A stretch of DNA of 44,358 nt from the NCBI RefSeq assembly GCF_028689785.1, contig NZ_JAQVCN010000038.1, positions 1 through 44,358 on the forward strand. The letters run 5' to 3'. The notes under the pieces were generated by a model that was not told the origin of the DNA, made no database searches, and worked only from the letters and a program-made list of their open reading frames with translations. A program made the translations under genes and the position numbers. This stretch comes from Zoogloea sp. (GTDB lineage Bacteria; Pseudomonadota; Gammaproteobacteria; Burkholderiales; Rhodocyclaceae). Below are positions 15,095 through 33,748 of the stretch, one piece after another; position 1 is the stretch's first letter; each line of letters opens with the position of its first letter.

Positions 15095-15320
15095 CAATCG
15101 GAATCTGCCTCACTGAAAAAAGTGAAACGACACTTAACCTCAGCCACCCGTCATCTTCGCGATTCACGCTGCTTTCTACAGCCCAAAAAATCACTCATAA
15201 TGTGTGCGATGAATCACAATCAATTCAGACGCTGCTCTCAAAAGAGACGCCCCATCTCTGAATCACTCCTTGCTGGCTGACAAACTGTCACCGTCCATTC
15301 GCAAACAGAAAGCCCTATCC

Positions 15321-15958: not shown

Positions 15959-16768
15959 CTACTCCGATTTTCTAATTAAGAACTCATCCATGGCTTCATT
16001 GCACTGGCGAGCTGCACCGTCGAAGTCGGGAAACAGCGTAAGCGCCGTAATGTTCATAGCTCGAAGCTCTGACAAGACTGCACATCGGTCGTAGTTATTC
16101 AGTTCGAACTTCAACATGATGTTCTGATTGGGGTACCGCGCACCTTGCTGATCTGCCCATTCGCGCAAGGGCCGTTCAGGGTGCAGCTTAAGGAGCAGTC
16201 CGGCCTGGGCCTTGAGCCGCATATTGCCATCTGATGACCCGCTAACGAGTATTGGATCGAGCTCGTCGACGATCACGCTCGGATTGGCCTCCTTATCGGG
16301 TAGGTACGATAGATTGAGAGCCCATATTGCTCGTTGCGACTCATCTTTGACTGAGCGATCCGAAAATGCGAAGTAGGCTGCAACATAGGGCGAGCTCGTG
16401 AAATCGAGCAGCGGCGTGTACATCCCATGGTGACGGGCCAGCGCCCACAGTTGATCGTCAGAGAGCGCGGGGGGGTTTGCACCTCGCAGCCCAACGATAT
16501 TTCGGCGAAAGCTCCCTAGCAGTGTCGGAAGAGCGCCCCTTTCCGACCATTGGGAGTGCGGTCCAATCAGTTTCCGATACAAGGAAGGCACCGGGTCCCA
16601 GGCGGCATCAGCTTGCCCCCTAAAGATGAAGCCTCGGTTCTTGACTGCCATCTGACGGAAGTAGGTGACAAGCTGGTCCCAGGATTCAACTGGGATGACG
16701 CGTAAGCCAGGCGGAGGAGGCAACTGTGGGGAATGATCTCCGCCGTGGCAAAGAGTCTGGTCGGGCAC
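15959..16768 (-). CDS. FRG-domain protein
   Basis: About 269 residues, with the FRG domain named for its FIFRGQ motif. After the motif come WDPVPSLYRK and the later conserved block ARHHGMYTPLLDFTSSPYVA. FRG proteins are often found in mobile and defence regions; a biochemical activity is not established here. I start it at GTG 16768 because AGGAG lies 5 bases upstream. The frame is open back to 16972, but that extension is translated from the GC-rich spacer and has no protein-like character. It is a single gene, convergent with the H-NS gene and divergent from the PIN gene. Confidence 0.75.
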   Translation of the reverse strand: MPDQTLCHGGDHSPQLPPPPGLRVIPVESWDQLVTYFRQMAVKNRGFIFRGQADAAWDPVPSLYRKLIGPHSQWSERGALPTLLGSFRRNIVGLRGANPPALSDDQLWALARHHGMYTPLLDFTSSPYVAAYFAFSDRSVKDESQRAIWALNLSYLPDKEANPSVIVDELDPILVSGSSDGNMRLKAQAGLLLKLHPERPLREWADQQGARYPNQNIMLKFELNNYDRCAVLSELRAMNITALTLFPDFDGAARQCNEAMDEFLIRKSE

Positions 16769-17131
16769 ATCCACTCCTGCGACGTTAAAACGCGCTAGTT
16801 TAGTGCGAAGCAAGCGGTTACGGAGTCGTACGCCGCAGTCTCGGGGTCGATGGCCGGTAACGGATTGGGACCCGCCGCCGAAGCGGCGAGGGTTCAGCGG
16901 CAGCTCCGGCCGACGAACTGCCTGCCACCAGGCGACAGTCGCCTCGTCGGCCTTTGCGGGCATTGACGCCAACGGACTAGAATGGCTGCCAGCCGGCTAG
17001 GAGCGGAAGGCCGACGTGGACCACGTCAGAACAACCTTAGTATCTGCCCGTGGGAGTTCCTGTGTTACGGATATACGCCCGATCATCGCATGTATCTCCT
17101 GGCTGATTCGCCAACTTCTTGCACTTGACTA
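16769..17131. other. GC-rich spacer B between FRG and PIN genes
   Basis: This must hold the divergent promoters of the FRG and PIN genes. From about 16800 to 17020 it is GC-rich spacer DNA sharing short strings with other spacers here: CAGCTCCGGCCGACGAAC with the spacer at 15840-15950, and CTCGTCGGCCTTTGCGGGC with CCTCGGCCTTTGCCGACG at about 20630. I see no convincing promoter boxes. Confidence 0.4.
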
Positions 17132-18055
17132 ATGGACTTCTTTCACGTCGTCATCGACACCAGCATGCTGCGCCAGATGCACTTCCAGCATCCGGATTTC
17201 GAGCGGCTGCTGCTCCGCTCTCGCAAGGGACTCCTTAAGATCTACATCCCGCACATTGTTCTGGAGGAAGAGCGCACCTACTTGCTTGCCAAGCTGGTAG
17301 AGCACGTGGAGCGTATTCACGCGACGCTCAAGAAGGTGAGCGAAGGGCTGCTGGCGATGCTGTCCCAGAGCCTGCCCAAGCCCTCGTTGGACATCTGGAC
17401 CAAGGAGGAGTTGGCGCGCAACTCTAAGGAGGTTTTCGACAGGATCGTTGTTAAAAACAAGATCGAGGTGCTGGCAATCTCCGACGCTCACACGACGAAC
17501 GCGTGGAAGCGCTACTTCGACTGCGCGCCGCCGTTCAACTCCGACCAGCCCCGCGAGACTAGACGCCAGGACATCCCGGATTCCTGGATTCTTGAAGCCG
17601 CCCTTGACCTCAAGGGCAAGCCAGGAAGGCTTTGCGCGCTGGTGGCCGATGGTAAGCTCAGGCGGGCTCTGAGGGATCAGGGTTTTGAGGTCTTCGAGAA
17701 CGTGGAGCCGCTTATTGGTACTGTGGAAGGTGCAAACACTGCACTGCCGATTAATCCACCCGTGCCGGCGGAGCCCGTGCCATTACATCAGCTGCGCAGC
17801 CAGGCCTTTCAGAACGTTGACCTCATCGTGCTGGGCGTGAACGAGGTTCTCCGCTCGCCGGCTAAGGACAAGCTATTCGACACACTGGAACGCGTCGGTA
17901 TTAACCGGGCCATCGCAGAACACGAGGCCCGCACATTGGTGCTGTCCGGCGTATTCAAGGATACGGGCCACCACCTAATTCCAACGAATCCAGCTCAAGC
18001 TGCACAGGCTGCTGACAGCGAGGCCGTCCAACTCGCTTTGCTGAAGGGTCTTTGA
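17132..18055 (+). CDS. PIN-like domain protein (probable RNase)
   Basis: 307 residues with a PIN-type nuclease fold in the first ~195. It opens FFHVVIDTSMLRQ with the first acidic residue at D9. A glutamate cluster follows in IPHIVLEEERTYLL (E45-E47), then aspartates in RRQDIPDSWILEAALDL (D147, D150) and ALVADGKLRRAL (D173). This spacing matches the metal-binding acidic set of PIN nucleases, close to the DUF4935 type. The last ~110 residues are a separate helical part. The stop overlaps the start of the next gene by 4 bases (ATGA), so the two are translationally coupled and probably act together. PIN proteins usually cleave RNA. No small antitoxin gene is present, so the large partner may restrain or trigger it. 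Confidence 0.75.
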   Translation: MDFFHVVIDTSMLRQMHFQHPDFERLLLRSRKGLLKIYIPHIVLEEERTYLLAKLVEHVERIHATLKKVSEGLLAMLSQSLPKPSLDIWTKEELARNSKEVFDRIVVKNKIEVLAISDAHTTNAWKRYFDCAPPFNSDQPRETRRQDIPDSWILEAALDLKGKPGRLCALVADGKLRRALRDQGFEVFENVEPLIGTVEGANTALPINPPVPAEPVPLHQLRSQAFQNVDLIVLGVNEVLRSPAKDKLFDTLERVGINRAIAEHEARTLVLSGVFKDTGHHLIPTNPAQAAQAADSEAVQLALLKGL

Positions 18056-20472
18056 TGCAAAACATCGAACTGCGTCTCGCGGCGCTCGCCAAGCTTGTGA
18101 CAGCCAACTCCGAGTCAGTCGAACAACGACTAGGGGAGGAAATGGCGCACGTTGAGCAGACGTTACTCACCGGCACGGACTATGACGAGTTAGTTAACGC
18201 TCTGAAGACGATTGCAGTGCTAACGCCAAAGTTCCATGCGGCCGTGCTCCCGTTGTTGACGCGTTTTGTCGAATCGGTGCGCCATCGTACGCTCACCATG
18301 GATGGCGAGCCGATTCAGGAGTCCCGGATTCGCTTCAGGTCACCAGGACACCTAATTCGTGAGGCTATCGAAGCGACCACCCCTGTGCGCTACTTGCACA
18401 CAGTTGCATTGGTTGACTTCCTGCTAGCACTGTCCAAATCCTCGGACACCGAGGTCGCTGGCAAAGCCCGGCGGGCGTTCGAGTCGCTGGTGGAATTCGA
18501 TCTGAACGTCTTCTACGGCGAGCACGGCTTAGGTGCGCAGCCGCAGATTGATATCGTGGCGCGCCTTGCGCGGTTGGACGACGACGCCCTGGTGGCAAAT
18601 GCAGACCTCGTCTTTAGCGGGTTGCGCCGTGCGTTGGCCGCTTCGATGGAGGGCCACACGTGGACATACAAAGCGGTAACCATCAGCCGTGGCTCCGTCA
18701 CTAGCGATTGGGGCGTGGCCCCACTGCGCGCAGCTGCAATTGCGCTTCTCAAGCGCATGTACCCGCTCAGTGAGTCCGTCGGATACCGGAAGAACGTCCT
18801 GAGCACCCTCGGCGAGGCGATGCGCCACGAACGGCCGGCTCTCGATGAGGCTACGGCCGCAATGTTCGAGCGGGATGCGCTAGAAGTACTGGCGTTTGTG
18901 GAAGGACTCGTGACCGCAGAGACGCTTCCGCTGGTGCAGTTCATTGAACACCAAACCTATTGGAAGTACTACCATGCCGCAACGCCGAATATAGCGGCTG
19001 CTGCACTGAGGATTCGCGACTCATTAGACCAACACGCGGAGTACCAGATTTACAAGCAGTTGATTGGCTTCGAGGGAATCTTCGGCCGTTGGGAGGACCT
19101 ACGGCAGTCCGAGGCTGCCTGGGAGTACACCGACGAGAAACGTCGCGAGTTTGCTCACCAGTACGTCGCCGAAATCAACGACGACAACGAAACGCAATGG
19201 CGTACGCGCATTCTGAAGTTCAGCAAGACGCGTTCGGACGACCTTGCCACGTTTCCTGTCTACTACGAATTCCTGGAGTTGCTGGGCCAGCGCAGGCCGC
19301 AGCTAGCTCTTGAACTGCTGACGGCCCATGAAGAGACGATGGGGCCCTTCCAGATCGCGCTGATGGCGGGACTATGGGTCGGGCCCCAGAGCGATGACGT
19401 TGTGACAATCGCCGACGGCTGGATCGCCGCTGGTACGCATCTGATTGCGGTCGCAAAATCGCTCATCAAGGGTGGTGAGCGGCGATTGGGAACGCTGTCC
19501 GCCGTGATCCACAAGGGTTCAGAACTCGACAACGACGACGTGATTGTTCACGCGATGGGTACCGCCGCCCGCCTGCATGGCGAAGGCGTCGTCGCGGCCA
19601 AAGGTATCTTCATGCATGGCCTTCACGAATTGGCCAAGCGCGGTAACGCTGATTGGGCGCGGGCGGTCTGGTTCAACCGCGACTTCAAGACGCTGATTGC
19701 CAACATGGACGCGGACGAGCGGTCCGAGGTGCTGCGCAGCCTGGCATCGCTGAGCAAACTGGACTATCAGGCCGAGGAAGTGCTCGCGGCGGTCTGCGCG
19801 TATGACAGCTTGTCGGTGCTCGACTTTCTCGTGAGTCGGCTGAAGCAAGAAGCGACCGAGCACAAACGCCGCCGCGAAACTAATGTGTTCGAGGAAGACG
19901 CGTTCGAGGCAGTCCCGGATCACCTTCATCAACTCAACAAGGTACTGGCCAAGGAGCCACAGGCCTTGGTCCGGGCGCTGCGTGATGGGTTCGATGACGA
20001 CGATCGGTCAATGTTTCCTTACCGCGGCGGCGCCCGGTTGCTAAAGGCGGCATTCCCGAATTTTGCCGATCCTCTTCCGGGCTTGTTGCAGGAACTCATC
20101 GCGGGCGCTGACCCAACGGATATCGACTTCTCTCTGAGCGTGCTACGTTCCTTCGGAGGTGGAGCTCCTATTCTGGAAACGGCAAAGTCAATCGTCAAAG
20201 TGGTACCCGAGAACTCCCCTGCTTGGAATGAATTGGCTGCTGCACTGGAGACCACCGGCGTGGTCATGGGTGAGTACGGAATGGCAGAGGCGTTCGAGCG
20301 GAAGCGCCAAGACATGCTGACCTGGTCTGCCGACGAAGACCCTCGTGTGCGCACGTTTGCCGCTTGGCTAGTTAAAGGGCTAAATCAGCTCATCATTCAA
20401 GAGCGTCAGCGGGCGGACGAAGGCATAGAGCTGCGTAAATACCGATATGGCGCCGGCGAGCATGAGACTTAG
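18052..20472 (+). CDS. Unknown 806-residue helical protein partnered with the PIN gene
   Basis: I do not recognise a family. The protein is soluble, with no signal peptide or membrane segment, and is made of many amphipathic helices in a repeating pattern suggestive of a HEAT/ARM-like solenoid. Examples are YDELVNALKTIAVLTPKFHA, VALVDFLLALSKSS and RSEVLRSLASLSKLDYQAEE. I see no nucleotide-binding or catalytic motif. It is coupled to the PIN gene by an ATGA overlap. A scaffold that senses a trigger and positions or inhibits the nuclease is one reading, but that is inference. After the stop at 20472 there is only spacer DNA, so the unit has two genes. Confidence 0.75.
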   Translation: MMQNIELRLAALAKLVTANSESVEQRLGEEMAHVEQTLLTGTDYDELVNALKTIAVLTPKFHAAVLPLLTRFVESVRHRTLTMDGEPIQESRIRFRSPGHLIREAIEATTPVRYLHTVALVDFLLALSKSSDTEVAGKARRAFESLVEFDLNVFYGEHGLGAQPQIDIVARLARLDDDALVANADLVFSGLRRALAASMEGHTWTYKAVTISRGSVTSDWGVAPLRAAAIALLKRMYPLSESVGYRKNVLSTLGEAMRHERPALDEATAAMFERDALEVLAFVEGLVTAETLPLVQFIEHQTYWKYYHAATPNIAAAALRIRDSLDQHAEYQIYKQLIGFEGIFGRWEDLRQSEAAWEYTDEKRREFAHQYVAEINDDNETQWRTRILKFSKTRSDDLATFPVYYEFLELLGQRRPQLALELLTAHEETMGPFQIALMAGLWVGPQSDDVVTIADGWIAAGTHLIAVAKSLIKGGERRLGTLSAVIHKGSELDNDDVIVHAMGTAARLHGEGVVAAKGIFMHGLHELAKRGNADWARAVWFNRDFKTLIANMDADERSEVLRSLASLSKLDYQAEEVLAAVCAYDSLSVLDFLVSRLKQEATEHKRRRETNVFEEDAFEAVPDHLHQLNKVLAKEPQALVRALRDGFDDDDRSMFPYRGGARLLKAAFPNFADPLPGLLQELIAGADPTDIDFSLSVLRSFGGGAPILETAKSIVKVVPENSPAWNELAAALETTGVVMGEYGMAEAFERKRQDMLTWSADEDPRVRTFAAWLVKGLNQLIIQERQRADEGIELRKYRYGAGEHET

Positions 20473-20881
20473 CGGCTCTTCCCAATGGAAGGTCTAGTAG
20501 AGAGTCTGCTTACCTGCGCCAAGTTCGAGTCCGATTATGTCCGCTTTGGGTCATGAAGCCGTCGTCCATTCTGAGAAAGCTGGCCGGCGGCTTCAGCCGA
20601 GGAGGAGTCCGTCGAATCAACGGCTGGACCTCGGCCTTTGCCGACGTTCACGGCGAGCGGAAGGGGTGGCAGCTATGAGTCAGTCAGCTGTCGCTCGAGC
20701 TACGTCAAGGCTCAATGGCAGCTTTTTCGACAGCTGTCCGGCTGAAACCGACCCAAAGCGGATTCTAATCACGTTGGAAAGCAGACATTCCTATGTTCTG
20801 CGGTGATGAGCGCCCCGCTTATGGGTTCGTGGCTTAGAATCCGTCCGAGCGCTAGGACCTTGCCGCCGTAAGCGCCGATTT
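20473..20881. other. GC-rich spacer C
   Basis: No gene is convincing in these ~400 bases. From about 20560 to 20700 the sequence is spacer DNA with runs of GGC/GCCG trinucleotides and a shared string with spacer B (CCTCGGCCTTTGCCGACG). It separates the PIN unit from the convergent Ntn-type gene, so it should also hold both transcription ends, but I see no clear hairpin with a T tract. Confidence 0.4.
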
Positions 20882-21727
20882 CTACCCATCCTGAAACGAA
20901 TCGTTCGTTTCTTTGTTCAATGGGCGCCATCCATGGCGCTGCGCTCCTCTGATGAGCTCACCATTAGACAAGACTCGTTCAAACTTGATATTTCGCCAAT
21001 CCGTTCTAAATCCTATTGGTGCATCACGACTTTCGCACTTTTGTCCTCGGTAGTAGGCTCCTTGGGGTAGAACCACACCAATATGTCGCGAAGTCGATTT
21101 GCAGCCGATACTTACAACCTGGATTGCACCACCAGAGTGCACGTCATTGCCGCTCAGTACGGAATCACAAAACCCCGCAAAGAAGGCCCGGCTAAAATCA
21201 CCGGCAACAGCAGTTGTCGCATACACTGCCCGCCTCACGTGTGGCACTCCAGACCCAGACAATTCAATCACTGAAGATCTATTCACTTCAGTCGACAACT
21301 CACAGACTGATACCTCCGCGCTACTAGCATTGATGCGATAGCTCGTTAAGTAGAACACCGCTTGGGGGCCCCATCCATAGCGTGTACCGTAAAGAATTGT
21401 CGTGGTGTGCTGAAGCCTGCCGTGCGTTGCCAATAACTTTGAACGCAAATTTTTCTCGATCCATTCTGCACGGCCATGGGGGGATGTTTTCAAACCATAT
21501 GGCACTTGATCAGCCTCAATTGCCGAGCATGTGCTTGATAGGAAGCCTTGAGCAAATTCGACATCCCCGGAGAAGGCAAAAATGTCCTCGCTCCCTTCTG
21601 GCGCATAAAGCTTGACACAGTCATCATGAAACTCGCCGTTCGCAAAGCTGCGCCTACTATCACTCGCAAAGTAAAGTCCTGTCGGTTGACGCGAATCAAC
21701 GGCTAACCAAGCAATTACTGAGGTCAA
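20882..21727 (-). CDS. Ntn-hydrolase-like protein (proteasome/HslV-type fold)
   Basis: 281 residues. It begins MTSVIAWLAVD, so after Met removal a threonine is the first residue, as in HslV and proteasome beta subunits. A G..FASDSRRSF stretch follows (aspartate at 22 of the processed chain), then a lysine in CVKLYAPEG (38) and IFAFSGDVEFAQGFL. This resembles the T1 / D17 / K33 arrangement and first strands of proteasome-like Ntn hydrolases, with slightly longer spacing. The rest (about 100-281) is not a standard HslV body. It lies about 200 bases downstream of the helicase-nuclease gene on the same strand and may be co-transcribed. A protease acting on a host or phage protein is plausible but not proven; another Ntn amidase is possible. 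Confidence 0.6.
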   Translation of the reverse strand: MTSVIAWLAVDSRQPTGLYFASDSRRSFANGEFHDDCVKLYAPEGSEDIFAFSGDVEFAQGFLSSTCSAIEADQVPYGLKTSPHGRAEWIEKNLRSKLLATHGRLQHTTTILYGTRYGWGPQAVFYLTSYRINASSAEVSVCELSTEVNRSSVIELSGSGVPHVRRAVYATTAVAGDFSRAFFAGFCDSVLSGNDVHSGGAIQVVSIGCKSTSRHIGVVLPQGAYYRGQKCESRDAPIGFRTDWRNIKFERVLSNGELIRGAQRHGWRPLNKETNDSFQDG

Positions 21728-21924
21728 TATTTGGTTCTCGAAAAATAGTGTGAGATACTAAAAGCTGCAACTCCCTGACTCCCTCGCCAAGTACATTTGC
21801 TTTTTGGAGTGTGCTTCAAGAGGGAGGCGGCTGAAGATAGAGACCACCCCCGGGTTCCAACCCCGGGGACGCAGGGCGAAGACATAACCGCCCTAGTTCA
21901 GTAGTACCAAGGGAAGATATTGGC
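21728..21924 (-). other. Gap between helicase and Ntn genes with a GC-rich hairpin
   Basis: The gap contains a perfect 7-base inverted repeat, CCCCGGG and CCCGGGG around a TTCCAAC loop, at about 21848-21869. No T tract follows on either strand, so it is not a standard terminator. It could be an attenuator or RNA-processing site between the two minus-strand genes. The loop looks like a tRNA T-arm, but no tRNA can be built around it. Confidence 0.4.
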
Positions 21925-24423
21925 TCATTTCAGGAGAGAGGCGTACTTTCCTGCAAATTGCTCGGGTAACAAGCCATATTCCCGCATAAGCCTGTGAACA
22001 TTGTCTGGCACGACAAAGACGGGGCCCTGTTCAGTAAGCCTGAGACAAAACCCTTCAAGATTTGCACACAGCTTGTCGAATCCATCTTGGCTAATCTTCA
22101 AACTCCCTTCCAAAAATATTGCGTCTGTGGCTGTGAGCACTTCAGCCTTGGCAACTACCACAGGTATTACCTTTTCGTTCCTTGTTGGATAGTTGTCATG
22201 GAACCACGCCATCGATTGATGTTGCTGCCCCGCATCTTCTTTCGGCAATACAGTTCCTCTTTCGTTCTTTGCCTCAATCACGAAAGACCACTCTCCCCAC
22301 AGCCAAAGATTATCGGGACCAACACGGAACTCATCATCCGGTCTTGTAGAAATGGCACCTAGCGCCTCCCCTAACAGCCTCCAAGCCTCTTCAATACGGT
22401 GTGCTTTGTTTACGTAAGCTCCTTCAGCGCGAATTGTTCTGATGGCAGCAACCGCAGCATTTCCATTATGGAAAGCTCGGAACCATTCGCAGACATGCAT
22501 CGCGACTGTTTTACTCCCCATCTGCAACGGTTTCTTGATCGCAGCTGGAGGAATTAACAGGGTCCTATTCTTTTCGTACGCTCCCTGCTGAAGCTTCAAG
22601 GCTTCAGTAGGGTCGTATAGCTGGACAATTGAAGCCAGCCTCTGCAATAAAACTCCCTGCTCCTCTGCGCTTGGGGCATCCCCAACAATGGAGCTCATAA
22701 TCTCTTTGGCTTCCGGAAAACGGTTTGAAATGCATAGATCATGCGCCCGGCGTTCAATGCTTGAAATCGATATGCGCACATTATTCGGCTGAATTTCATC
22801 CTTCGGAATCGACCGTACCTTTTGATTGTAAAAATCTTTCCAAGACTGAACCCGATTAAGGCACTGGGACACCGCTTCATGTACAGCCTTAGCTGGATCA
22901 CCCGTACTTGCCATTCGAAGAATTTTGGCAAGCTCGAAAGACAAATTTATCTGATTTCGGCTATCGTGCGTCATCGCCTCAAGAATCTGCTGTCTTCCGA
23001 CGAAACTTGCCAATTCTTGACCCGCCAAGAGTACGACAGCATAGTCCGCGTGCGAACGAACTGCGCGCCCCATACCTTGCTCGATTCGATAGATCAGCTT
23101 ATTACGGACGCCTCCGGGCACAATTGACTGCGAGGCATCATGTCGATCAATCACCCCCTCGCCTGTAGGTAATCCATCAATTACCAATACTCGACATACA
23201 TCGTCCGGAAGATCGACTCCGTCATAACGCTGGACGAATACGGCAAAACGCATCGCACAACTCGGTTGTTTTAGTAATCGCACCCCCTCGGAGAAGGAGT
23301 CGCCGATAAATACACAGGCGCCAACGTCTTCCCAATCTCTAGCAAGTTGCTCACTCGGAGCAAGTACTACTACGTTATGGGTCTTTGCTATATCGGAGCA
23401 CAAGTCCATAACGAACTTCCGCTCTAGTGCAGGATCAACCAAAGATGGAGCAATTACCATGCGCTCGCCCAGTCCACGATCAGACGGAGGACTAATGGGA
23501 TTTAGCGCGGACTCTGGGGCTATGTTTAGTTCCCGAACCAGGACGGAATCATCGGCAATAGTGGCGGACATGAACAATCTATGTGCAGCTTTGTCGAACC
23601 CGCGCACCAATTCGACGGGCAGCACATCAGGAGCTATTTCCGCTTGAGTGCCAGAAATCACACACCGGCAACGCGCTAATCCACGTTGAAGATATGGCCA
23701 CACAAACTTAAAGAGATCGCTATCGGAATATTCATGCAGCTTTTGAAGAATTTGTTCAGAATACTCAGACCAAATCCAGAAGGGCACTTCTAATGTTGCA
23801 TGGGGATCACCGGCCTCAATGTCCAACCATCGCGTCCGGTGGTACTGTGAGCATGAGGCTCCAATGATTGCCTTGAGTTTTTCAAGCGGAGCTCCAGTAA
23901 GACTTAACGTAAAACTCTTGCGCACTAACTCAACACCGGCGTGCGCATCGTCAAGAACCACGGCCACAGGAAGCAAACGCACATCCGAACGATCAAACGT
24001 GGTCTTGGCGTTAAATAATTTATCGTAAGTACAGACAAGTATCCCTTCCCCTCGCATACATTCTGGATCCGGATGAGGCTCTCTCGCTGCGTAATGGGAT
24101 GCTCTAATCCCAAGCTGGCTCGCCTCGGCTAATGTTTGCTGAACAAGTTGAACGGTTGGGCAGAGAAATACCACTGGACCTTTTGCCATCCTCATGTGTG
24201 CATACAAATATAGGAGGCCGACCGTCGTCTTACCAGCACCAGTGCTTATTTTCAATACAAGATCTCGCTCCTGATGCCTTGCTGTTAGTTGCTCCATTGC
24301 CTCCCGTTGAGAAGGACGTGGCTCTGTATGACTGCTCTTCCGATCCAGCTTGTCAAAAATAGCCAACAGATCAAAGGCATCAGAAACAGGTGCGGCCGCA
24401 GTAAACTTGGAAAAATCGAGCAT
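21925..24423 (-). CDS. DEAD/DEAH-type helicase fused to a PD-(D/E)xK-like nuclease
   Basis: 832 residues. The N-terminal half is a superfamily 2 helicase: Walker A STGAGKTT (60-67), a DDAH box in AVVLDDAHAG (158-161), FMSATI (motif III, near 285) and QGMGRAVR (motif VI), followed by YAVVLLAGQEL as in XPD/DinG-like proteins. The middle (about 500-690) is helical. The C-terminal part has a nuclease-like signature: VGPDNLW with D704, then FVIEAKN with E716 and K718, and GQQHQSMAWF after it. This matches the D...ExK...Q pattern of PD-(D/E)xK nucleases. It probably unwinds or tracks along nucleic acid and cuts it. The neighbour downstream is the Ntn-type gene. I know no described defence system with this pair. 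Confidence 0.75.
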   Translation of the reverse strand: MLDFSKFTAAAPVSDAFDLLAIFDKLDRKSSHTEPRPSQREAMEQLTARHQERDLVLKISTGAGKTTVGLLYLYAHMRMAKGPVVFLCPTVQLVQQTLAEASQLGIRASHYAAREPHPDPECMRGEGILVCTYDKLFNAKTTFDRSDVRLLPVAVVLDDAHAGVELVRKSFTLSLTGAPLEKLKAIIGASCSQYHRTRWLDIEAGDPHATLEVPFWIWSEYSEQILQKLHEYSDSDLFKFVWPYLQRGLARCRCVISGTQAEIAPDVLPVELVRGFDKAAHRLFMSATIADDSVLVRELNIAPESALNPISPPSDRGLGERMVIAPSLVDPALERKFVMDLCSDIAKTHNVVVLAPSEQLARDWEDVGACVFIGDSFSEGVRLLKQPSCAMRFAVFVQRYDGVDLPDDVCRVLVIDGLPTGEGVIDRHDASQSIVPGGVRNKLIYRIEQGMGRAVRSHADYAVVLLAGQELASFVGRQQILEAMTHDSRNQINLSFELAKILRMASTGDPAKAVHEAVSQCLNRVQSWKDFYNQKVRSIPKDEIQPNNVRISISSIERRAHDLCISNRFPEAKEIMSSIVGDAPSAEEQGVLLQRLASIVQLYDPTEALKLQQGAYEKNRTLLIPPAAIKKPLQMGSKTVAMHVCEWFRAFHNGNAAVAAIRTIRAEGAYVNKAHRIEEAWRLLGEALGAISTRPDDEFRVGPDNLWLWGEWSFVIEAKNERGTVLPKEDAGQQHQSMAWFHDNYPTRNEKVIPVVVAKAEVLTATDAIFLEGSLKISQDGFDKLCANLEGFCLRLTEQGPVFVVPDNVHRLMREYGLLPEQFAGKYASLLK

Positions 24424-24760
24424 AGAGTCTTGGTCTCGTCAGAAATTTACCACACAGCTTATCAATCCAAATTGCATTCTGCAATGAAGTTGCGGCAACG
24501 CCTGAATTTCGATTATGAGTATTCGGAAGCCTGAAATCTGAAACTAGTCAAACTATCTTAGCGAGAGCTAAAGCACGGCTCAGAAATGGAACGACAAGCC
24601 AGATGCTCCCAGCAATGAGTCCTCGGGAAAGCTCCCACCATTGACCGGCTGGTTGGCGGCCGCTTGCTGCCCTATCGAGCATGCAGTACCAACGGCAGCA
24701 AAGGCCAAGGAACTGTCGCCTGAACGACCGTCGCCTCGCCGGCCGTAGTGGACACTATGC
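24424..24760. other. Helicase upstream region and GC-rich spacer D
   Basis: The first ~170 bases are AT-richer and should contain the promoter of the leftward helicase gene; I cannot fix its boxes. From about 24630 to 24750 the DNA is GC-rich spacer (CCGGCTGGTTGGCGGCCGC and similar), of the same general kind as the other spacers here. No gene is visible. Confidence 0.35.
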
Positions 24761-24807
24761 TTAGCGAGCTAAGCGGCTGGGGGAAGGTGGGATCGCCGGG
24801 CGCTTAC
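24761..24807. repeat. IS66-type element end (copy 2 of a dispersed repeat)
   Basis: Near copy of 886-932. Both contain TTAGCGAGCTAAGCGGCTGG and end in GCTTAC. Read on the minus strand it starts GTAAGCGCCCGGCGATCC, a typical IS66 terminal sequence. No IS66 coding sequence is attached here, so only the end survives, abutting an IS1380-type fragment. Confidence 0.7.
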
Positions 24808-25115
24808 CCACAAAGCCCGGCCAGCCGTCACACATCTACTACACCAACCAAATGGCATACCTGCGCCTGGTGCTGGGCGTGGAAGTCAAGGCGGGGACAA
24901 CGACCACACGGGCAGCCATAGTCTGCCTGGGATGCTGAAGATCCTGAACGGTCTGCCAGCGGAACAACGCCCGAAGATGGTGCGCGGGGACAGAGGGTTT
25001 GGTTCAGACGTGATTCTGCGCGAACTGGAAAGCCTCGAGCAGCCCTACCTATTGAAACTGCAGCTCTCAAACAACGTAAAGCGCCACCTCGAACGGGTTT
25101 TCCGGGTACCGGGCT
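24808..25115 (+). pseudogene. IS1380-family transposase fragment
   Basis: The first part reads KPGQPSHIYYTNQMAYLRLV in one frame. After a frameshift near 24915 it continues as LNGLPAEQRPKMVRGDRGFG, then SDVILRELESLEQPYLLKLQ and NNVKRHLERVF. This is the catalytic centre of IS1380-type transposases (pattern RGD.GFG...L..LE...YL.KL..S.NVKR). Both ends are missing and the frame is broken. Confidence 0.7.
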
Positions 25116-25757
25116 GAGGGTCGGCCGGACTCTCGAACTGCTGATGAACGACCATGCTGGCGAAGCCCAGTTTGGCTTCGTGCAAGGCGAGTTCCTGTGC
25201 GGTCAGAAAAACGTCTAGACGCGGCTTTCCACGCGAAAATGTAGCTAGAACTGCCGCATCAACCTCCGTGATGGAGAGGTAACCATATCCGTCGTCAGCA
25301 AGTATCAGCTAGGCAACGTGACCCGATACTTGTCCAGAAAATGTGCTTCCTTAGCACGACGAGCGGCCGCGGCAAGCTGCTCCGCGCGCTCCTGAACCAC
25401 CGGTGTCAACCGCACAGACTCAACGGACACGACGAGCCGCTTCTTCGCCTTGACGAGCGAAGCGTGCTTTTTCAAGAGAAGGCTTCGAGCGGATCGCTTC
25501 ATAGTATGGGGTCTGAACATTCGAACACCGTCCCCGCGGATCGAAGTCGCTGAGATACTAGGACAGAAAAGAGATTGCGCGCAATCCGTACATTCCTGCA
25601 GTCATGGCGAGACTGTAGGATGTGTTATTTAGTCCGCCCTGAACAATCAGTCCACCCTTCCCCCACGCGGGCTGGGGCTCTCTGAAGCCTTGCCGAATTT
25701 TCCAGTTTCCAGTGCAATCACATTCACTTTCTGGAAGATTGGGAGTACAGGTTTGCG
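25116..25757. other. Decayed interval between IS1380 and IS5 remnants
   Basis: About 640 bases without a gene I can support. A minus-strand frame starting at ATG 25502 (MKRSARSLLLKKHASL...) gives a 65-residue basic, helical product ending at 25305. It lacks a ribosome binding site and a known family, so it may be a fragment of a lost gene. The right part (about 25640-25757) probably contains the left end of the IS5 remnant, but I cannot define its inverted repeat. Confidence 0.3.
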
Positions 25758-26060: not shown

Positions 26061-27773
26061 ATGACTGACAAGAAAGAGATCGACGCCCGCACGGCCGAGC
26101 GGCTACTGGCTGTCTGGCGTGCCTTGCGTGAAGGCAAGCTGAATGTGGCTCCGCAATTCCGCGAATTAGCCGAGGAGTTCATGGCCGCGCCGCTGACCAT
26201 GGTCGGCCTTGTCGACACGAGCCACATGTCCGAAAGGGCACTTTCCTTTGGCCACACATCAGGCATGGCACTCGACTTCATGGTGCAGCGCGAGCCGGAA
26301 CAGCCCCTCCCGTCATCCTTGCCCATGGCTGAGGCTCAGCCCGAACTCTTCCGGCTGTTTGCGCAGCTCTTTGCCGCCCTGACTGGCAGGGCGGTCGCAC
26401 TGGTTGCGAACGAGCAAGAGATCAAGGAGCGGATGCTCTGGCGCCTCAAGCACGAGTCCGACGCGATGTCCGAGGCGGTGAACGCAGCATCGGATGAGCT
26501 GGCGGCTTTCTACAGCTCTAACGCAGTCAAGCTCTTCCAGCACGCGAAGTCGCTTGGCGGCATGCGCCTAGTAACCGGTGGGCAACGCGCCTTCGGTCCG
26601 TCGGCACTCAATGCTGTCCGCATTACGGGTCTCTACGCCGACACGCAACTGCTCCCCGATCCTGTGTACCCTTTTCTTTCGGCCGACCTGCGCCTGAACG
26701 CTAAGCCTCTCCAGCTCGCAAACTCGCTCTTCTACATCCTCCAGTTGCGCCCGTTGGTTGACGCCGGGCTGCCCGTTCCGCCGGTGTTTGTATTCCCGAG
26801 CTTCGAAGAAGACCTCGAAGAGCACGACGCCCACACCAAGCATGGCATCGAGCGACTGGCCATCAGGATGGTAGCCCCCCTCTGCGAGGGCACTGTTGCG
26901 TCGGTGGGCGAATTGTTCGAGTACGCGAACAAGCATGGTGAGCCGTTTGCGCAGGCGCTTCTGGCAAGCGGGCTCTTCATCCCGCCAGGCGCGCAACCTG
27001 ACCAACGGTTTGGCGTGGCGGAGGCAGCGAAGGCGTACATCGCGGCGCTCGAAGGCGTGCGGTCCGAAGAAATGCTCGCCAAAATGAAGGCGCTGCCGAA
27101 AGGCGTTCTGCTATTAAACGGCGTTTGCGAGCGGATACGCCCGCACTATCACCTGCTCGAAAACGCTACTGAACTTGGTGCGCAGCCTCTGCTGTCGCAG
27201 CGCGCGCACTGGCACTACTTTGAGAAGTGCGCGCAGGCGAACGCCGAAGACCTGCGGCGCAAGAGCGTCCTGTCCGAGCAAGCATTTCTGACCCTGCGAG
27301 CCGTCCAAGATGACAGCCTGTCCTGGCTGGCGACGATCCCTGTACAGACGCTCACCGAGCTGATCGCCAACAACGAACATCGCTGGCTCCGCGAGGAGCT
27401 GAACAAGTACACGGCGCAGCTCGCTGGCGGCGAGGCCATCGATACCAACGACATGGTGCGCGAAGTGAGCTTTGGCCTCGCTTCGTTGGTCCAGCGGCAG
27501 CAGAGGGCCATGAACGACATTGAGCGGAAGTACGCACCCAAGAAGGTGGCGGCGTACCTCGGCGGCGGGTCAGGCCTCGCCATAGCGGCTGTAGCCGCGT
27601 TGCTTCCAAGCCTTTCACCGCTGCTTAGTGTTGCGATTCCGGCTGCAGCAGCGGCTACTGCCGTTGGTAGCGGCGTTATTGGCTTTGGCAAGGAGAAGAT
27701 CGGAGAACAGGTGGAGAAGCGCCAAGCCAAACGCTCGATGCTCGGGGTCCTTGCGACGGTCCGTCCCCGCTGA
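26061..27773 (+). CDS. Unknown 570-residue protein with hydrophobic C-terminus
   Basis: I do not recognise the family. The ATG at 26061 has GGAGAC just upstream as a ribosome binding site. Residues 1 to about 490 are soluble and mostly helical (for example EIKERMLWRLKHESDAMSEA). Two hydrophobic stretches follow near the end (about 500-520 and 522-545: GLAIAAVAALLPSLSPLLSV, then AIPAAAAATAVGSGVIGFG), then a basic tail. That tail architecture, a soluble domain ending in a membrane hairpin, is seen in some abortive-infection effectors, but also elsewhere. It is a single gene with no partner: an IS5 remnant lies directly upstream and 580 bases without a gene follow. Position among defence genes suggests a stand-alone defence function, which is inference. 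Confidence 0.75.
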   Translation: MTDKKEIDARTAERLLAVWRALREGKLNVAPQFRELAEEFMAAPLTMVGLVDTSHMSERALSFGHTSGMALDFMVQREPEQPLPSSLPMAEAQPELFRLFAQLFAALTGRAVALVANEQEIKERMLWRLKHESDAMSEAVNAASDELAAFYSSNAVKLFQHAKSLGGMRLVTGGQRAFGPSALNAVRITGLYADTQLLPDPVYPFLSADLRLNAKPLQLANSLFYILQLRPLVDAGLPVPPVFVFPSFEEDLEEHDAHTKHGIERLAIRMVAPLCEGTVASVGELFEYANKHGEPFAQALLASGLFIPPGAQPDQRFGVAEAAKAYIAALEGVRSEEMLAKMKALPKGVLLLNGVCERIRPHYHLLENATELGAQPLLSQRAHWHYFEKCAQANAEDLRRKSVLSEQAFLTLRAVQDDSLSWLATIPVQTLTELIANNEHRWLREELNKYTAQLAGGEAIDTNDMVREVSFGLASLVQRQQRAMNDIERKYAPKKVAAYLGGGSGLAIAAVAALLPSLSPLLSVAIPAAAAATAVGSGVIGFGKEKIGEQVEKRQAKRSMLGVLATVRPR

Positions 27774-28354: not shown

Positions 28355-28858
28355 CTACCCGCCACACTCCACTGGGTGATCTATTAGCACACATCGTTCG
28401 ATCTCTAGTCTTCCTGACAGACCCAGCCATAATTCACCGCTCCACCCCATGATCAAGAACACCATGGGCGCTTGCCGCTGGCTGCAGATCTTGCGCCACT
28501 CGCTGAGATCGGTCGCGGATGGGCTGGGATGGAGCTCCGGATGAGTATGCCATTCGCCCAGATAGTCTATCTTCCTGCCGCTCTCGTTCCACTGGTGAAG
28601 CGCGATCTCCTGGTGATGGCGGGCGGAACGCTTGAATAGATAGCGCCAACCGCGATCACTGGCCTGCGGTGCTGTAGCCATGGTCACGTGCAAATGGGCA
28701 CCGCGCCGGTACCCCAGCAGGATCCCACCGGATTCAGGCTTACTGGTGCTGTCCTGCCAGTGCCTGTCCATCAACGCCAAGGGCTCGGCCTCAACGAGGA
28801 TCTGCCCAGCGCAGAGACACAGGCCATGCGAAACTAGGGCCGAGCGCATGCTGGACAT
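28355..28858 (-). CDS. cap3: CBASS Cap3, JAB/JAMM deubiquitinase-like protease
   Basis: 167 residues from ATG 28858; an ATG at 28849 is an alternative. The zinc-protease motif HTHPELHPSPSATD matches JAMM (H104, H106, S114, D117), with a glutamate in PESGGILLGY (E43). In type II CBASS, Cap3 cleaves the bond that Cap2 makes to the C-terminus of the CD-NTase, limiting or reversing its activation. The gene overlaps the end of cap2 by about 25 bases and is last in the operon. The frame is open back to 29032, but that part lies inside cap2 and the shorter start fits family length. Confidence 0.9.
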   Translation of the reverse strand: MSSMRSALVSHGLCLCAGQILVEAEPLALMDRHWQDSTSKPESGGILLGYRRGAHLHVTMATAPQASDRGWRYLFKRSARHHQEIALHQWNESGRKIDYLGEWHTHPELHPSPSATDLSEWRKICSQRQAPMVFLIMGWSGELWLGLSGRLEIERCVLIDHPVECGG

Positions 28859-30501
28859 CCATCCATCCGGGTCAGGTTCTGGTTCTTCACCCTGTAGACA
28901 TCCGCGTTTTCCTGGCTGCGTGTGCGAAAACGCGGGGATGGATCCCCCTGAAGCCAGCCGCAAACCATATCGGCCGCAAGAGCCGCCGCCTGCATCGGGG
29001 CGGACACCGCATATGGCGTGTACGCACGGCACCCGTCCGTGCGCTGCAGAGGATCCGTCTTAAGCAAAGGAAACCGTTCCTTGCGATGGTAGCTTGCATC
29101 GGGAACAAGGAGACAGCGGTAGCAGGCCCCGCCTTCCGCATCTGCCCATAAGGCTTGCACAGACTCCCCATTGCCACGAATCCACACATGCAGCAGGGGT
29201 GTAAGGGTCCCACGCTGTAGCCGTAGTCCATTGAGGTACTCGCTCACCGACTCCTCGCCCGTCGCATCGACGATCAGTTCAGCCGCGAACAGTTGCGCAT
29301 GATCAAACACGCTGCAGGCATGGGCTTCGATGGCCGAGTGGGGAAACTGGCGAAGCAGTTCGTCCCTCAAAGCTCCTGCCTTGGTCTGCATCAGTGCGGG
29401 GTAGCCCAAAACATGACGTCCCAGGTTCTCCGGGCCAAGGTCATCGGGATCGATAAGTTTGAGTCGTCCGAGCTTGCCAGTGCCTCCACCCAATCGCACC
29501 AGCGCGGCTGCAACAAACGAGCCGATTGCACCGCACCCCACCACGGTCACCCGCTTGTTGTAGAGGTCTTGGTAGCTTAGGTTCCTGCTGTGCACGAAGC
29601 GACTGCCCGCCTCGCGCAGCGCCATGCGGAACAGATGCTGAACGCCACCGGCGTTGTGCAGGTAATTCCGGTAGCGCTTGGGGCTGTTGGCGTACCCCAG
29701 CCGTCTGATCTGATCCAAGTCGAAACCAAAGCCGATCCACCCTACCGGCGTTTTGACCGCAAAGGCGGCATAGGTTTGCTGCAGGTAATCCTTCTCGCCG
29801 AGCGCTTTCTGGATCCCGGCGTACAGGGTGCAGTCCCAGCTTCGGACCCAGACGAAGAGCTCCTTCACTGTCCGGGGCATCTGCACTGGCACGCGTGGGG
29901 GAACAGCGGTCTGGAACAACCAGCATCGATATCGTGATGCCGTCACAGCGGCCCCCAGCGACCGAGCCAACCGATGCGCTTCGTCCGGGTCGCAGGACAC
30001 GAGGGCATGCTTGCGCTCCCCCTTCCTCATGATGAAATACTTGGCGGTCGTTGCCTGCGGTTGGATATCGCCCAGAAAAACGGTCCACGGCAAGGACAAC
30101 TGCCCGTACTCCCAATGAGCCGGGAATTCGCTCTGGATGTCGTCAATGCGGTAATCCGGATTGGCAACGATCCGATCCAGCATGACGGTAGCTTGATCCA
30201 GACATTGGGCCACCGCAGTGGCAGGATCGTAGCGATCCAAGGTCACCGCGCCCGGTGCGAAGTAGCACAGGTGGCCTTGAACATCGACGTGGGGCATGAG
30301 CGCGGGGAGAAAGGCCGGGCGCTCAACCAGCGAGATCCGAGGGTACTCCAGGAAATTCCAGTCCTCGATGGTCAGCTTGACGGGCACTGGCCCTTTGGCA
30401 CACGGCAGAGAGCCTACGAAAACGCGACGAGGCGCCCGCGCCGCCACTGGGTGAAATCCACGACTTCGCAGCAGCCTCAGCGATTCGCCCAACGCCGTCA
30501 C
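28834..30501 (-). CDS. cap2: CBASS Cap2, E2-E1 fusion ligase
   Basis: 555 residues with a GTG start. The N-terminal E2-like domain has HVDVQGHLCYF with the likely transfer cysteine C79. A linker domain follows, then a ThiF-type E1 adenylation domain with VVGCGAIGS (320-328) and IDPDDLGPENLGRH. Cysteine pairs C459xxC462 and CPAC at the C-terminus look like a zinc site, and C490 in DGCRAYTPYAVS is a candidate E1 cysteine. In type II CBASS, Cap2 joins the C-terminal glycine of the CD-NTase to a target, priming it for signalling. It starts 12 bases after the CD-NTase gene and overlaps cap3. Length and order match the standard operon. Confidence 0.92.
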   Translation of the reverse strand: MTALGESLRLLRSRGFHPVAARAPRRVFVGSLPCAKGPVPVKLTIEDWNFLEYPRISLVERPAFLPALMPHVDVQGHLCYFAPGAVTLDRYDPATAVAQCLDQATVMLDRIVANPDYRIDDIQSEFPAHWEYGQLSLPWTVFLGDIQPQATTAKYFIMRKGERKHALVSCDPDEAHRLARSLGAAVTASRYRCWLFQTAVPPRVPVQMPRTVKELFVWVRSWDCTLYAGIQKALGEKDYLQQTYAAFAVKTPVGWIGFGFDLDQIRRLGYANSPKRYRNYLHNAGGVQHLFRMALREAGSRFVHSRNLSYQDLYNKRVTVVGCGAIGSFVAAALVRLGGGTGKLGRLKLIDPDDLGPENLGRHVLGYPALMQTKAGALRDELLRQFPHSAIEAHACSVFDHAQLFAAELIVDATGEESVSEYLNGLRLQRGTLTPLLHVWIRGNGESVQALWADAEGGACYRCLLVPDASYHRKERFPLLKTDPLQRTDGCRAYTPYAVSAPMQAAALAADMVCGWLQGDPSPRFRTRSQENADVYRVKNQNLTRMDGCPACARP

Positions 30502-30513
30502 GTGATCGCGCCT

Positions 30514-31695
30514 TCAGCCGGCCTTAGTGGAAGGGATCACCGGCGCCACCACGCGCGATGCGGGCGTGCTGCGAATGGCGTCCGGATCGCAGTCGAACTC
30601 CACACGTGTACTGTCCATCGGCAGACGCTCACCGAACTGCTGACGCAAGCGGGCAACCACTACCTCCTTCTCGTGCAGCGCCGACTCGCGCGCTTGGAAC
30701 AACTGAGCAGCCAACTGACCGAAGCGCTGGGCGGCAGCCTCGCGATCGGCTTCCTGGAGTCGGTTGAAATCTTCCAAGCCATCATCAATGCCCGGCTCCC
30801 GGATTTCACCCAGGAAGGCACGACTCAGGCGCCGGGCTGCATCCTCAAGCGCACGATCGTCGCGGCCAGCGCGTGGCTCGAACCCCTGCGCCACTGCAAT
30901 CATGATCGATACCGAACTGGGCCCCCCCTGCTGCCACTGGTAGTCACGCCAAGCCTTCAAGCAGCGACAGACCCGGCGCAGTTGCGGGCCGTGCTCCTCG
31001 AAGCGGTCCGTGAACCAGTTAGCCACGACCTCGGGGTCCGAAGGCTTCCATTCACCCTTGCGCGTCGCCATGACCACGCTGTCCAAGTCTTCCCACTGTT
31101 GTCGGATCTCAATGGCCTCTGCGAAATCGATGCTCTCCATGCTAACGGAGTCGTACGCGGCATGTGCTTTGGCCAAGGCAGCCAAGGCAACCGATTCGGT
31201 GATTTTCTCGAACTCCTCCACAGGTGCCGCATACAATGGAACATCAATGTGCGCCCAAGAGGCCACCTGGATGCGGATGCAAGTGGCCTTGCCAGGAAGA
31301 AGTTCCCACTCCTCCTTGTCGCAGAGTTCCTCCAGGAGTTGCTCGACTAGGACGAAGTAGGCCTTCGCCATATCATGGGGCGGCCCGTTCTCCTCCCACA
31401 CGGTGACCGGCAGGTAGACCCCATAGTCCCAGTCCATTTCCTGCGGCGGCATCATAGCCGGCACGACACATGTGTCGTAGGACCATGAGCCTTGCGTCCG
31501 AAAACGCGGTGTCACGCTGCGGTCCATACCGAGGACGGTTTTGGTAGCCAGGCTGATTCGCGGCTTAAGGTGGGTCTCGATCTTTTTGACACACGACCGC
31601 AGATAGCGGCGCTGTTCCATATCGGGGCGAATGCGACTCTCGAACGCATCCGCATCGCCCCCACTTTGGAAGAATAGTTTGGGAAACTTTAGCAT
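30514..31695 (-). CDS. cdnA: CBASS CD-NTase (DncV-like cyclic dinucleotide synthase)
   Basis: 393 residues of the cGAS/DncV nucleotidyltransferase family. The active site shows QGSWSYDT (G69-S70) followed by EMDWDYGVYLP (D88, D90) and the third acidic residue in AHIDVPLY (D151). It should make a cyclic dinucleotide upon phage infection that activates the CapV phospholipase. The pattern is closest to clade A DncV, whose usual product is 3'3'-cGAMP, but the nucleotide choice cannot be read with certainty. The protein ends in STKAG, a terminal glycine as required for conjugation by Cap2. Its start overlaps the end of capV by 7 bases. Confidence 0.93.
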   Translation of the reverse strand: MLKFPKLFFQSGGDADAFESRIRPDMEQRRYLRSCVKKIETHLKPRISLATKTVLGMDRSVTPRFRTQGSWSYDTCVVPAMMPPQEMDWDYGVYLPVTVWEENGPPHDMAKAYFVLVEQLLEELCDKEEWELLPGKATCIRIQVASWAHIDVPLYAAPVEEFEKITESVALAALAKAHAAYDSVSMESIDFAEAIEIRQQWEDLDSVVMATRKGEWKPSDPEVVANWFTDRFEEHGPQLRRVCRCLKAWRDYQWQQGGPSSVSIMIAVAQGFEPRAGRDDRALEDAARRLSRAFLGEIREPGIDDGLEDFNRLQEADREAAAQRFGQLAAQLFQARESALHEKEVVVARLRQQFGERLPMDSTRVEFDCDPDAIRSTPASRVVAPVIPSTKAG

Positions 31696-32711: not shown

Positions 32712-32989
32712 TACGCCTCGATGGTGTGGGTCCAAGCAGGAAGCCCACTTTCAGATAGGTACTCCACCAGCGGCGGACTACCAAAGAACTGGACTCGGCC
32801 ACCGGACATAAAGGCCAAGGCCGACTGATCGACTTGTAGATTGGCCCCCCTGGCTTTAGCAGTCAGTTCGGCGAGAAGCCGGGCATTGTCATCGCGTGTG
32901 CCGGATGAGGACCTAGCCTCGAAGACAGCAAAATTAATCCAACCGCCACGACGAGCATGCTCACGAAGATGGGCGAGATTGACCCTCAT
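32711..32989 (-). CDS. Unknown small protein leading the CBASS operon
   Basis: 92 residues from ATG 32989, which has AAGGAGG six bases upstream, a strong ribosome binding site. An in-frame ATG at 33031 lacks one. The product (MRVNLAHLREHARRGGWINF...) has a compact alpha/beta look, with FAVFEARSSSG, LLAELTAKARGANLQV and VQFFGSPPLVEYL, and no known motif. Its stop overlaps the capV start (TAATG), so it is translated together with the CBASS effector. It may be an operon-specific accessory or regulator, but no function can be assigned from sequence. Confidence 0.75.
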   Translation of the reverse strand: MRVNLAHLREHARRGGWINFAVFEARSSSGTRDDNARLLAELTAKARGANLQVDQSALAFMSGGRVQFFGSPPLVEYLSESGLPAWTHTIEA

Positions 32990-33544: not shown

Positions 33545-33748
33545 TGTCCGTACCGGTTTAAAACTGACCAGGTGTACCGGTTGAATTTTGACCAGGGGCG
33601 ATAGCCGCGCGTCATTCGTGCGGCTGTGGATAAGTCTAGCGGTTTTTCTCTTCCTGGATACCTCCTTCTGTACGGTGGCGAGGTACGTGTTGCCGGTGTG
33701 CCCTCCGCGCAGGGCGGAGCCCGGAGCGGAGGGCACACCGGGACGCCG

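What the first reader, a model, noticed from the sequence alone, without database searches (positions are those of the whole stretch)
20882..24423. Helicase-nuclease fusion followed by a proteasome-like Ntn hydrolase: candidate undescribed defence pair
The 832-residue gene combines helicase motifs (STGAGKTT, DDAH, QGMGRAVR) with a C-terminal D704...E716-x-K718 nuclease-like signature. The next gene on the same strand starts MTSV, with D and K spaced nearly as in HslV/proteasome active sites. A nucleic-acid motor-nuclease plus a protease-like partner in a defence region is not a combination I know from any named system. The 200-base gap with a hairpin leaves open whether they are one operon.
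Basis: partly seen in the sequence, partly recalled or inferred. Interest (0 to 1): 0.75.

Follow-up and report, generated by a model that had tools for sequence, protein, structure and literature searches.

The report
Hna defence gene beside proteasome-like enzyme
The first gene is a known kind of single-protein phage-defence enzyme called Hna, and the second is a separate proteasome-like enzyme that turns up beside many different bacterial defence genes, so the two look like neighbours rather than a pair.

Summary
The 832-aa gene (21925-24423, -) is an Hna-family protein: PADLOC PDC-S28 at E 9.5e-241, and S. meliloti Hna (PDB 10UJ/9YKJ) at E 1.6e-106. The 281-aa gene (20882-21727, -) is a proteasome-like Ntn hydrolase: AlphaFold2 pLDDT 92, and the 50 PDB matches listed are all proteasome or Anbu chains. 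In 50 aligned homologues residue 2 is T (48) or S (2), D23 is kept in 49, K39 and G54 in 50. The families do not travel together: no fetched locus outside the window has both, and in 398 phylum genomes only the window's own has both. Neither has a constant partner. The window's small protein matches nothing in Pfam, NCBIfam, PHROGs or PADLOC. Its relatives' neighbours are rich in varied defence genes (pAgo, Hachiman, restriction-modification, reverse transcriptases, AbiL, PDC-S06), well above a control, and the window is itself a defence island (Shango, FRG, Hna, CBASS). What remains interesting is a candidate solitary proteasome-type defence enzyme, not a helicase-protease pair.

The parts
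21925..24423 (-). Hna-family SF2 helicase with C-terminal PD-(D/E)xK nuclease, 832 aa (PADLOC PDC-S28)
   Evidence: PMC13381803
24223..24246 (-). Walker A STGAGKTT (residues 60-67)
   Evidence: homologues
22267..22275 (-). E717-A-K719 of the nuclease; K719 aligns with K729 of S. meliloti Hna, whose K729A mutant is nuclease-dead
   Evidence: PMC13381803 results section
21728..21924 (-). 197-nt gap with GC hairpin 21848-21868, no T-run
20882..21727 (-). proteasome-like Ntn hydrolase, 281 aa, TTG start
21722..21724 (-). codon of Thr2, the presumed N-terminal nucleophile after Met removal
   Evidence: T in 48, S in 2 of 50 rows
21659..21661 (-). codon of Asp23 (proteasome Asp17 position)
   Evidence: 49 of 50 rows
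21611..21613 (-). codon of Lys39 (proteasome Lys33 position)
   Evidence: 50 of 50 rows

Best explanation
Two independent single-gene modules sit side by side in a defence island. Module 1 is Hna. By homology it is an ATP-held, autoinhibited 3'-5' single-strand DNA exonuclease; a phage single-stranded DNA-binding protein releases it, and it then degrades DNA and aborts infection (shown in print for S. meliloti Hna, inferred here). Module 2 is a proteasome-like Ntn hydrolase. Removal of the initiator Met should expose Thr2, which with Asp23, Lys39 and the Gly54 oxyanion position should cleave or transfer a peptide (fold and residues shown by computation, activity inferred). It has no recurring gene partner, so it most likely acts alone or with housekeeping factors on one or a few unfolded or exposed protein targets. 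Its steady company of varied defence genes suggests a role in phage defence (inferred).
For: Hna: PDC-S28 E 9.5e-241 over residues 1-829; S. meliloti Hna E 1.6e-106 over residues 1-758; mechanism from PMC13381803 (abstract, introduction, one results section, data availability). Ntn: model pLDDT 92.1, pTM 0.90; 365 PDB chains at E<=0.001, the 50 listed all proteasome or Anbu; profile against PDB sequences gives 4 hits at E<=10, all proteasome beta subunits, weak at E 0.05-0.68; catalytic columns. Independence: Hna in 2 of 53 Ntn genomes or records, neither adjacent; in 398 phylum genomes Hna in 6, Ntn in 5, both only in the window's own; no fetched locus outside the window's own holds both; around the Ntn gene only an integrase-like family recurs, in 8 of 52 loci, other families in 3 at most; around Hna no family is shared by more than 2 of 17 loci. 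Defence company: 113 Ntn neighbours (42,190 residues) hit 293 PADLOC models at E<=1e-10, against 12 for 113 control proteins (43,355 residues); after removing five neighbours the other 108 still hit 207, including pAgo, HamA, HamB, REase_I, MTase_I, II and III, LmuB, AbiLi and PD-T7-4.
Against: In this genome the genes are on one strand, 197 nt apart, and could be co-transcribed. No activity of either window protein is known. PADLOC models are redundant, so model counts overstate the number of defence proteins, and the tool gave no count of distinct proteins hit; the models listed matched one neighbour each. The control also hit some defence models (for example RT_UG29, LmuB, PDC-S03). By eye, part of the Ntn loci lie beside integrases, transporters or ordinary metabolic genes. 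The neighbour clustering used BLAST at E 1e-5 and could miss remote homologues. Two divergent Hna relatives (L073, L078) lack the nuclease Lys.
Confidence: 0.78

Rival explanations
1. A dedicated two-gene system: the Ntn protease switches Hna on or off by cleaving it or an inhibitor.
For: Same strand, 197-nt gap; no promoter-like or terminator-like site was found in the gap.
Against: No adjacent case outside the window; the nearest fetched Hna relative (L070/L087, phmmer E 4.1e-282) has no Ntn on flanks of about 7.5-8 kb; S. meliloti Hna is described as a single effector (PMC13381803).
Confidence: 0.07
2. The Ntn gene is passenger cargo of mobile islands with a non-defence job (for example clearing damaged protein or maturing a peptide), and its nearness to defence genes only reflects shared insertion hot spots.
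For: An integrase-like family is its only neighbour that recurs in more than 3 loci (8 of 52); 5 viral contigs carry it, each within 3 kb of a contig end; Fuchs et al. 2021 found no contexts suggesting a function for the homologues they described (PMC8665760).
Against: The excess of defence models around it against arbitrary stretches of genomes that carry it; in L032 it follows a pAgo gene by 267 nt on the same strand, and in L023 it lies between genes that read as HsdR and HsdM.
Confidence: 0.25
3. The Ntn protein is a general helper that many defence systems recruit, for example to limit their toxicity or to trigger them.
For: It starts 31-45 nt behind different genes that read as defence-like in L007, L009 (annotated HEPN/Toprim-associated) and L038 (by eye), and lies between HsdR- and HsdM-like genes in L023.
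Against: No single system type recurs, and in many loci the next genes lie far off or on the other strand.
Confidence: 0.15

Closest known systems
Hna (helicase-nuclease abortive infection), S. meliloti SMa2245 (PMC12445080, passages), PDB 10UJ/9YKJ; PADLOC PDC-S28
   Same: Homology over helicase and nuclease, SF2 motifs, PD-(D/E)xK with the Lys whose mutation kills the nuclease, no recurring gene partner
   Different: The window protein fits PDLC04986 far better than PDLC04987 (799.6 against 384.6 bits), so it may belong to another subclade than S. meliloti Hna (not tested); the alignment to S. meliloti Hna stops at residue 758 of 832
Proteasome-like homologues of Fuchs, Alva and Lupas 2021 (BPH, Anbu, connectase and 22 new ones; PMC8665760)
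   Same: Proteasome fold with Thr1, Asp17, Lys33 and Gly47 equivalents, residue 2 exposed without a propeptide, no recurring partner gene
   Different: Which of the 22 it is, if any, could not be tested (their sequences are not held). The model shows no insert between its two later helices, where the paper reports one for PMI-2 to PMI-6. The parts of the paper read report no defence-island setting
HslV
   Same: Fold class and catalytic residues
   Different: No recurring partner gene beside it (HslU itself was not searched for); longer at 281 aa (HslV length recalled)
Helicase-nuclease defence systems Hachiman, Gabija, Nhi, Cas3
   Same: Helicase plus nuclease logic (as grouped in the introduction of PMC13381803)
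   Different: Different families; HamB and Cas3 models match only the motor region weakly

Membership tests
Hna | Homology to S. meliloti Hna over helicase and nuclease | tested here: met
   E 1.6e-106, residues 1-758 against 1-769; PDC-S28 1-829
Hna | SF2 helicase motifs | tested here: met
   Pfam DEAD, ResIII, Helicase_C_2; motifs
Hna | C-terminal PD-(D/E)xK residues | tested here: met
   D704, E717, K719; K719 aligns with K729
Hna | Single-gene system | tested here: met
   no neighbour family shared by more than 2 of 17 Hna loci, window included (BLAST E 1e-5, five genes each side)
Hna | Reduced arch domain without iron-sulfur cluster | not tested
   stated for S. meliloti Hna in PMC13381803; the window protein was not modelled
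Hna | 3'-5' ssDNA exonuclease, ATP-autoinhibited dimer, SSB-triggered abortive infection | not testable with these tools
   bench only
Proteasome-like Ntn hydrolases | Proteasome fold | tested here: met
Proteasome-like Ntn hydrolases | N-terminal Thr/Ser nucleophile after Met | tested here: met
   T 48, S 2 of 50; processing itself not tested
Proteasome-like Ntn hydrolases | Asp17 and Lys33 equivalents, Gly47 oxyanion position | tested here: met
   D23 49/50, K39 50/50, G54 50/50; equivalence from alignment and spacing, not from model coordinates
Proteasome-like Ntn hydrolases | Curated family match | tested here: not met
   window protein: 0 hits in Pfam, PADLOC, NCBIfam, PHROGs; 50 members against Pfam: no proteasome model
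Proteasome-like Ntn hydrolases | Peptidase or ligase activity, ring or monomer | not testable with these tools
   bench only
HslV | Partner unfoldase HslU next to it | tested here: not met
   no neighbour family but integrase-like ones recurs in more than 3 of 52 loci; HslU itself was not searched for
Hna-Ntn two-gene system (reader) | Conserved adjacency of the two genes | tested here: not met

The most novel reading that the evidence does not exclude
The small gene founds an unrecognised single-gene anti-phage system: a self-sufficient proteasome-type threonine enzyme, spread across Pseudomonadota, Bacteroidota, Cyanobacteria, Actinomycetota, Bacillota and others, that cleaves or ligates a phage or host protein on infection. 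It would be a proteasome-fold effector of bacterial immunity, and no PADLOC model matches the window's copy.
Probability: 0.35. Interest if true: 0.78.

Novelty: new variant of a known kind. Interest (0 to 1): 0.45.

Why it matters
The helicase half adds a member to a family whose mechanism is already largely worked out. The other half bears on a complaint in print: Fuchs et al. 2021 found many proteasome homologues but no gene context hinting at function. For this family there is a hint, namely defence genes of many kinds with no fixed partner, and that makes a phage-challenge test of a proteasome-like enzyme straightforward.

Tried and rejected
Rejected: HamB, Cas3, DinG or DpdF identity for the helicase (only weak motor-region hits). 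Rejected: conserved operon. Rejected as spurious relatives of the Ntn protein: L005 and L006 (L006 reads as a sulfatase-like gene, by eye; neither matches the family profile). PMI-4 of Fuchs et al. was considered for the Ntn family and not supported: the model has only three residues between the helices at 160-174 and 178-191, where the paper reports an insert. Searches with the window protein alone in genome contigs, phages, four family libraries and PDB sequences (three chance-level hits) gave no relative; 22 other genomes of the same genus have none; the alignment-based scan found 51 loci. DNA similarity of the region to plasmids: none.

Rows dropped before counts. Of the 51 loci, six are not rows of A2: L045 and L058 (near-duplicates), L057 (identical to P0012) and L055, L060, L064 (interrupted frames); the partial copy L010 was left out too. 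Rows L028 and L030 of A2 are identical, so the 50 are not fully independent. Neighbour set A4 is 113 of 164 listed (plasmid loci and a number of other, mostly farther, neighbours left out; 150-1300 aa); A6 is A4 minus five (three with RT-like motifs, two AAA_13-like, picked). Control A5 is 113 drawn at random from 155 ORFs in 14 stretches at arbitrary fixed places, one per genome (6 of 20 requested stretches did not exist).
Full report
Observation. The two ORFs are at the stated places on the minus strand: 21925-24423 (832 aa, ATG) and 20882-21727 (281 aa, TTG). The gap is 197 nt with a 7-bp GC hairpin (21848-21868) and no T-run; the gap as a whole folds little better than shuffled sequence (z -1.19). 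Over 20400-25000 the promoter-like matches (2, expected 3.2) and terminator-like matches (7, expected 4.6, sd 2.3) are near chance, and none lies in the gap.

The helicase is Hna. PADLOC model PDC-S28 (PDLC04986) covers residues 1-829 at E 9.5e-241. Among PDB sequences the only strong match is the 845-aa protein of entries 10uj, 9yhn and 9ykj, E 1.6e-106. PMC13381803 (Hooper et al. 2026; abstract, introduction, one results section and data availability read) names 10UJ and 9YKJ as S. meliloti Hna, a single-effector abortive-infection system with SF2 helicase and PD-(D/E)XK domains. It is a 3'-5' ssDNA exonuclease held inactive as an ATP-bound dimer and released by a phage SSB; K729A kills the nuclease. 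K729 aligns with window K719. That PDC-S28 and Hna are one family is my inference from both matching this protein. In 16 full-length proteins (window included) D704 and E717 are kept in 16 and K719 in 14; the exceptions are the divergent L073 and L078, and one fragment (L071) was set aside. Around 17 Hna loci, window included, no neighbour family is shared by more than 2 (161 neighbours, five each side).

The small protein is a proteasome-like Ntn hydrolase. The window protein has no match in Pfam, NCBIfam, PADLOC or PHROGs; of 50 family members scanned against Pfam none matched a proteasome model. tblastn found five plasmid records with distant relatives, and an alignment of six members found 51 loci in the genome collection; their record titles name Pseudomonadota, Bacteroidota, Cyanobacteria, Actinomycetota, Bacillota, Acidobacteriota and others (phylum names recalled). 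In 50 aligned members the second residue is T in 48 and S in 2, D23 in 49, S24 in 50, K39 in 50 and G54 in 50. AlphaFold2 on 47 sequences gave pLDDT 92.1 and pTM 0.90. Foldseek gave 365 PDB chains at E<=0.001, and the 50 listed are all 20S proteasome or Anbu (best 3krd_R, E 1.6e-10, TM by target 0.61). A profile search against PDB sequences gave four hits, all proteasome beta subunits, at weak E-values of 0.05-0.68.

They are not a pair. Of 53 genomes or records with the Ntn gene, 2 also hold Hna. In one (G482) it lies on a 78-kb contig while the Ntn gene lies on a 25-kb contig; in the other (G469) it lies at 5.08 Mb and the Ntn gene near 0.44 Mb of a 5.69-Mb chromosome. In 398 genomes drawn from the phylum, Hna is in 6 (E<=1e-30) and Ntn in 5 (E<=1e-6), and only the window's genome is in both lists (the two draws show the same make-up). 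Numbers this small say little about genome-wide association but rule out obligatory pairing. In the order, Hna is in 6 of 399 genomes and the Ntn protein alone matched 5 of 300, two of them spurious. In held flanks (up to about 8 kb, less at contig ends), none of 16 other Hna loci has an Ntn gene and none of the fetched Ntn loci outside the window's own has Hna. The nearest fetched Hna relative (L070/L087) lacks it too.

The Ntn gene has no constant partner either. With up to six predicted neighbours on each side in 52 loci (window included), only an integrase-like family recurs in more than three loci (8 loci; integrase Pfam hits). But much of the changing company is defence. 113 neighbour proteins hit 293 PADLOC models at E<=1e-10 (reverse transcriptase 3 members, PDC-S06 2). 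113 control proteins of nearly equal total length, from arbitrary stretches of 14 genomes that carry the gene, hit 12 models, best E 3.8e-55, among them RT_UG29 and LmuB. Without the three RT-like and two AAA_13-like neighbours, 108 proteins still hit 207 models; the 25 listed, all at E below 1e-64 and one member each, include pAgo, HamA, HamB, type I restriction and methyltransferase, type II and III methyltransferase, LmuB, PD-T7-4 and AbiLi. Model counts are inflated by redundancy; the contrast, not the number, is the evidence. Placed examples: pAgo 267 nt upstream on the same strand in L032 and HamB two genes away on the other strand in L031; in L023 the gene lies between genes that read as HsdR and HsdM (names by eye, in line). 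The gene is rare in viral contigs (5 loci, each within 3 kb of a contig end), and the window protein matched nothing in phage records.

The window is itself a defence island: Shango SngABC 9071-15097, an FRG protein (PDC-S15) 15959-16972, a PIN_12 protein with an 806-aa partner 17132-20472, the Ntn gene, Hna, and CBASS genes with E1-E2 (28834-30501), DncV-like cyclase and patatin (to 32735), then a WYL regulator and IS21 (the system names Shango and CBASS for these gene sets are recalled).

What is in print. Fuchs, Alva and Lupas 2021 (PMC8665760; abstract, results, discussion and passages read) describe 22 new proteasome homologues and state that no genomic context suggested a function. Whether this family is one of the 22 could not be tested. 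Searches for a proteasome-like or Ntn protein in phage defence showed none among the titles listed: 3 of 3, 5 of 5, 20 of 44, 20 of 354, and no paper at all. In the main text of the DefensePredictor paper PMC13092281 the words proteasome, Ntn and protease do not occur. That is absence from these searches only.

Mechanism and confidence. Hna acts here as elsewhere (inferred from homology). For the Ntn protein, the fold and catalytic residues are shown by computation; Met removal, catalysis, lack of a partner in the cell and an anti-phage role are inferred. I put 0.78 on two independent modules and 0.35 on the Ntn protein being a single-gene defence system.

Noticed in passing
window 17132-20472 (+): PIN_12-domain protein overlapping by 4 nt an 806-aa protein with no Pfam, PADLOC or PDB-sequence match; distant relatives of the 806-aa protein on five plasmid records. 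Looks like an uncatalogued two-gene system.
   Followed up: partly
window 26061-27773 (+): 570-aa ORF between Hna and CBASS without a Pfam or PADLOC match; one partial plasmid hit and one chance-level PDB hit.
   Followed up: partly
window 24800-25220: Stretch that reads like a broken transposase remnant upstream of Hna, by eye only.
   Followed up: no
window 9071-15097 and 28834-32735 (-): Shango (SngABC) and CBASS genes (E1-E2, DncV-like cyclase, patatin) in the same island, with a WYL regulator at 33062-33736.
   Followed up: partly
L073, L078: Divergent Hna relatives keep PD and E but have lost the nuclease Lys (E-D-Y, E-D-H), suggesting a changed or dead nuclease.
   Followed up: no
L114-L118: All five viral-contig copies of the Ntn gene lie within 3 kb of a contig end, as cargo at prophage borders might.
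   Followed up: no
L009:6677-8774 and L007:6408-8834: In Arcobacter the Ntn gene starts 31 nt behind a HEPN/Toprim-annotated gene, in Pseudomonas 33 nt behind a 519-aa protein with a nuclease-like ECK motif (by eye), each followed about 200 nt later by a small gene.
   Followed up: partly
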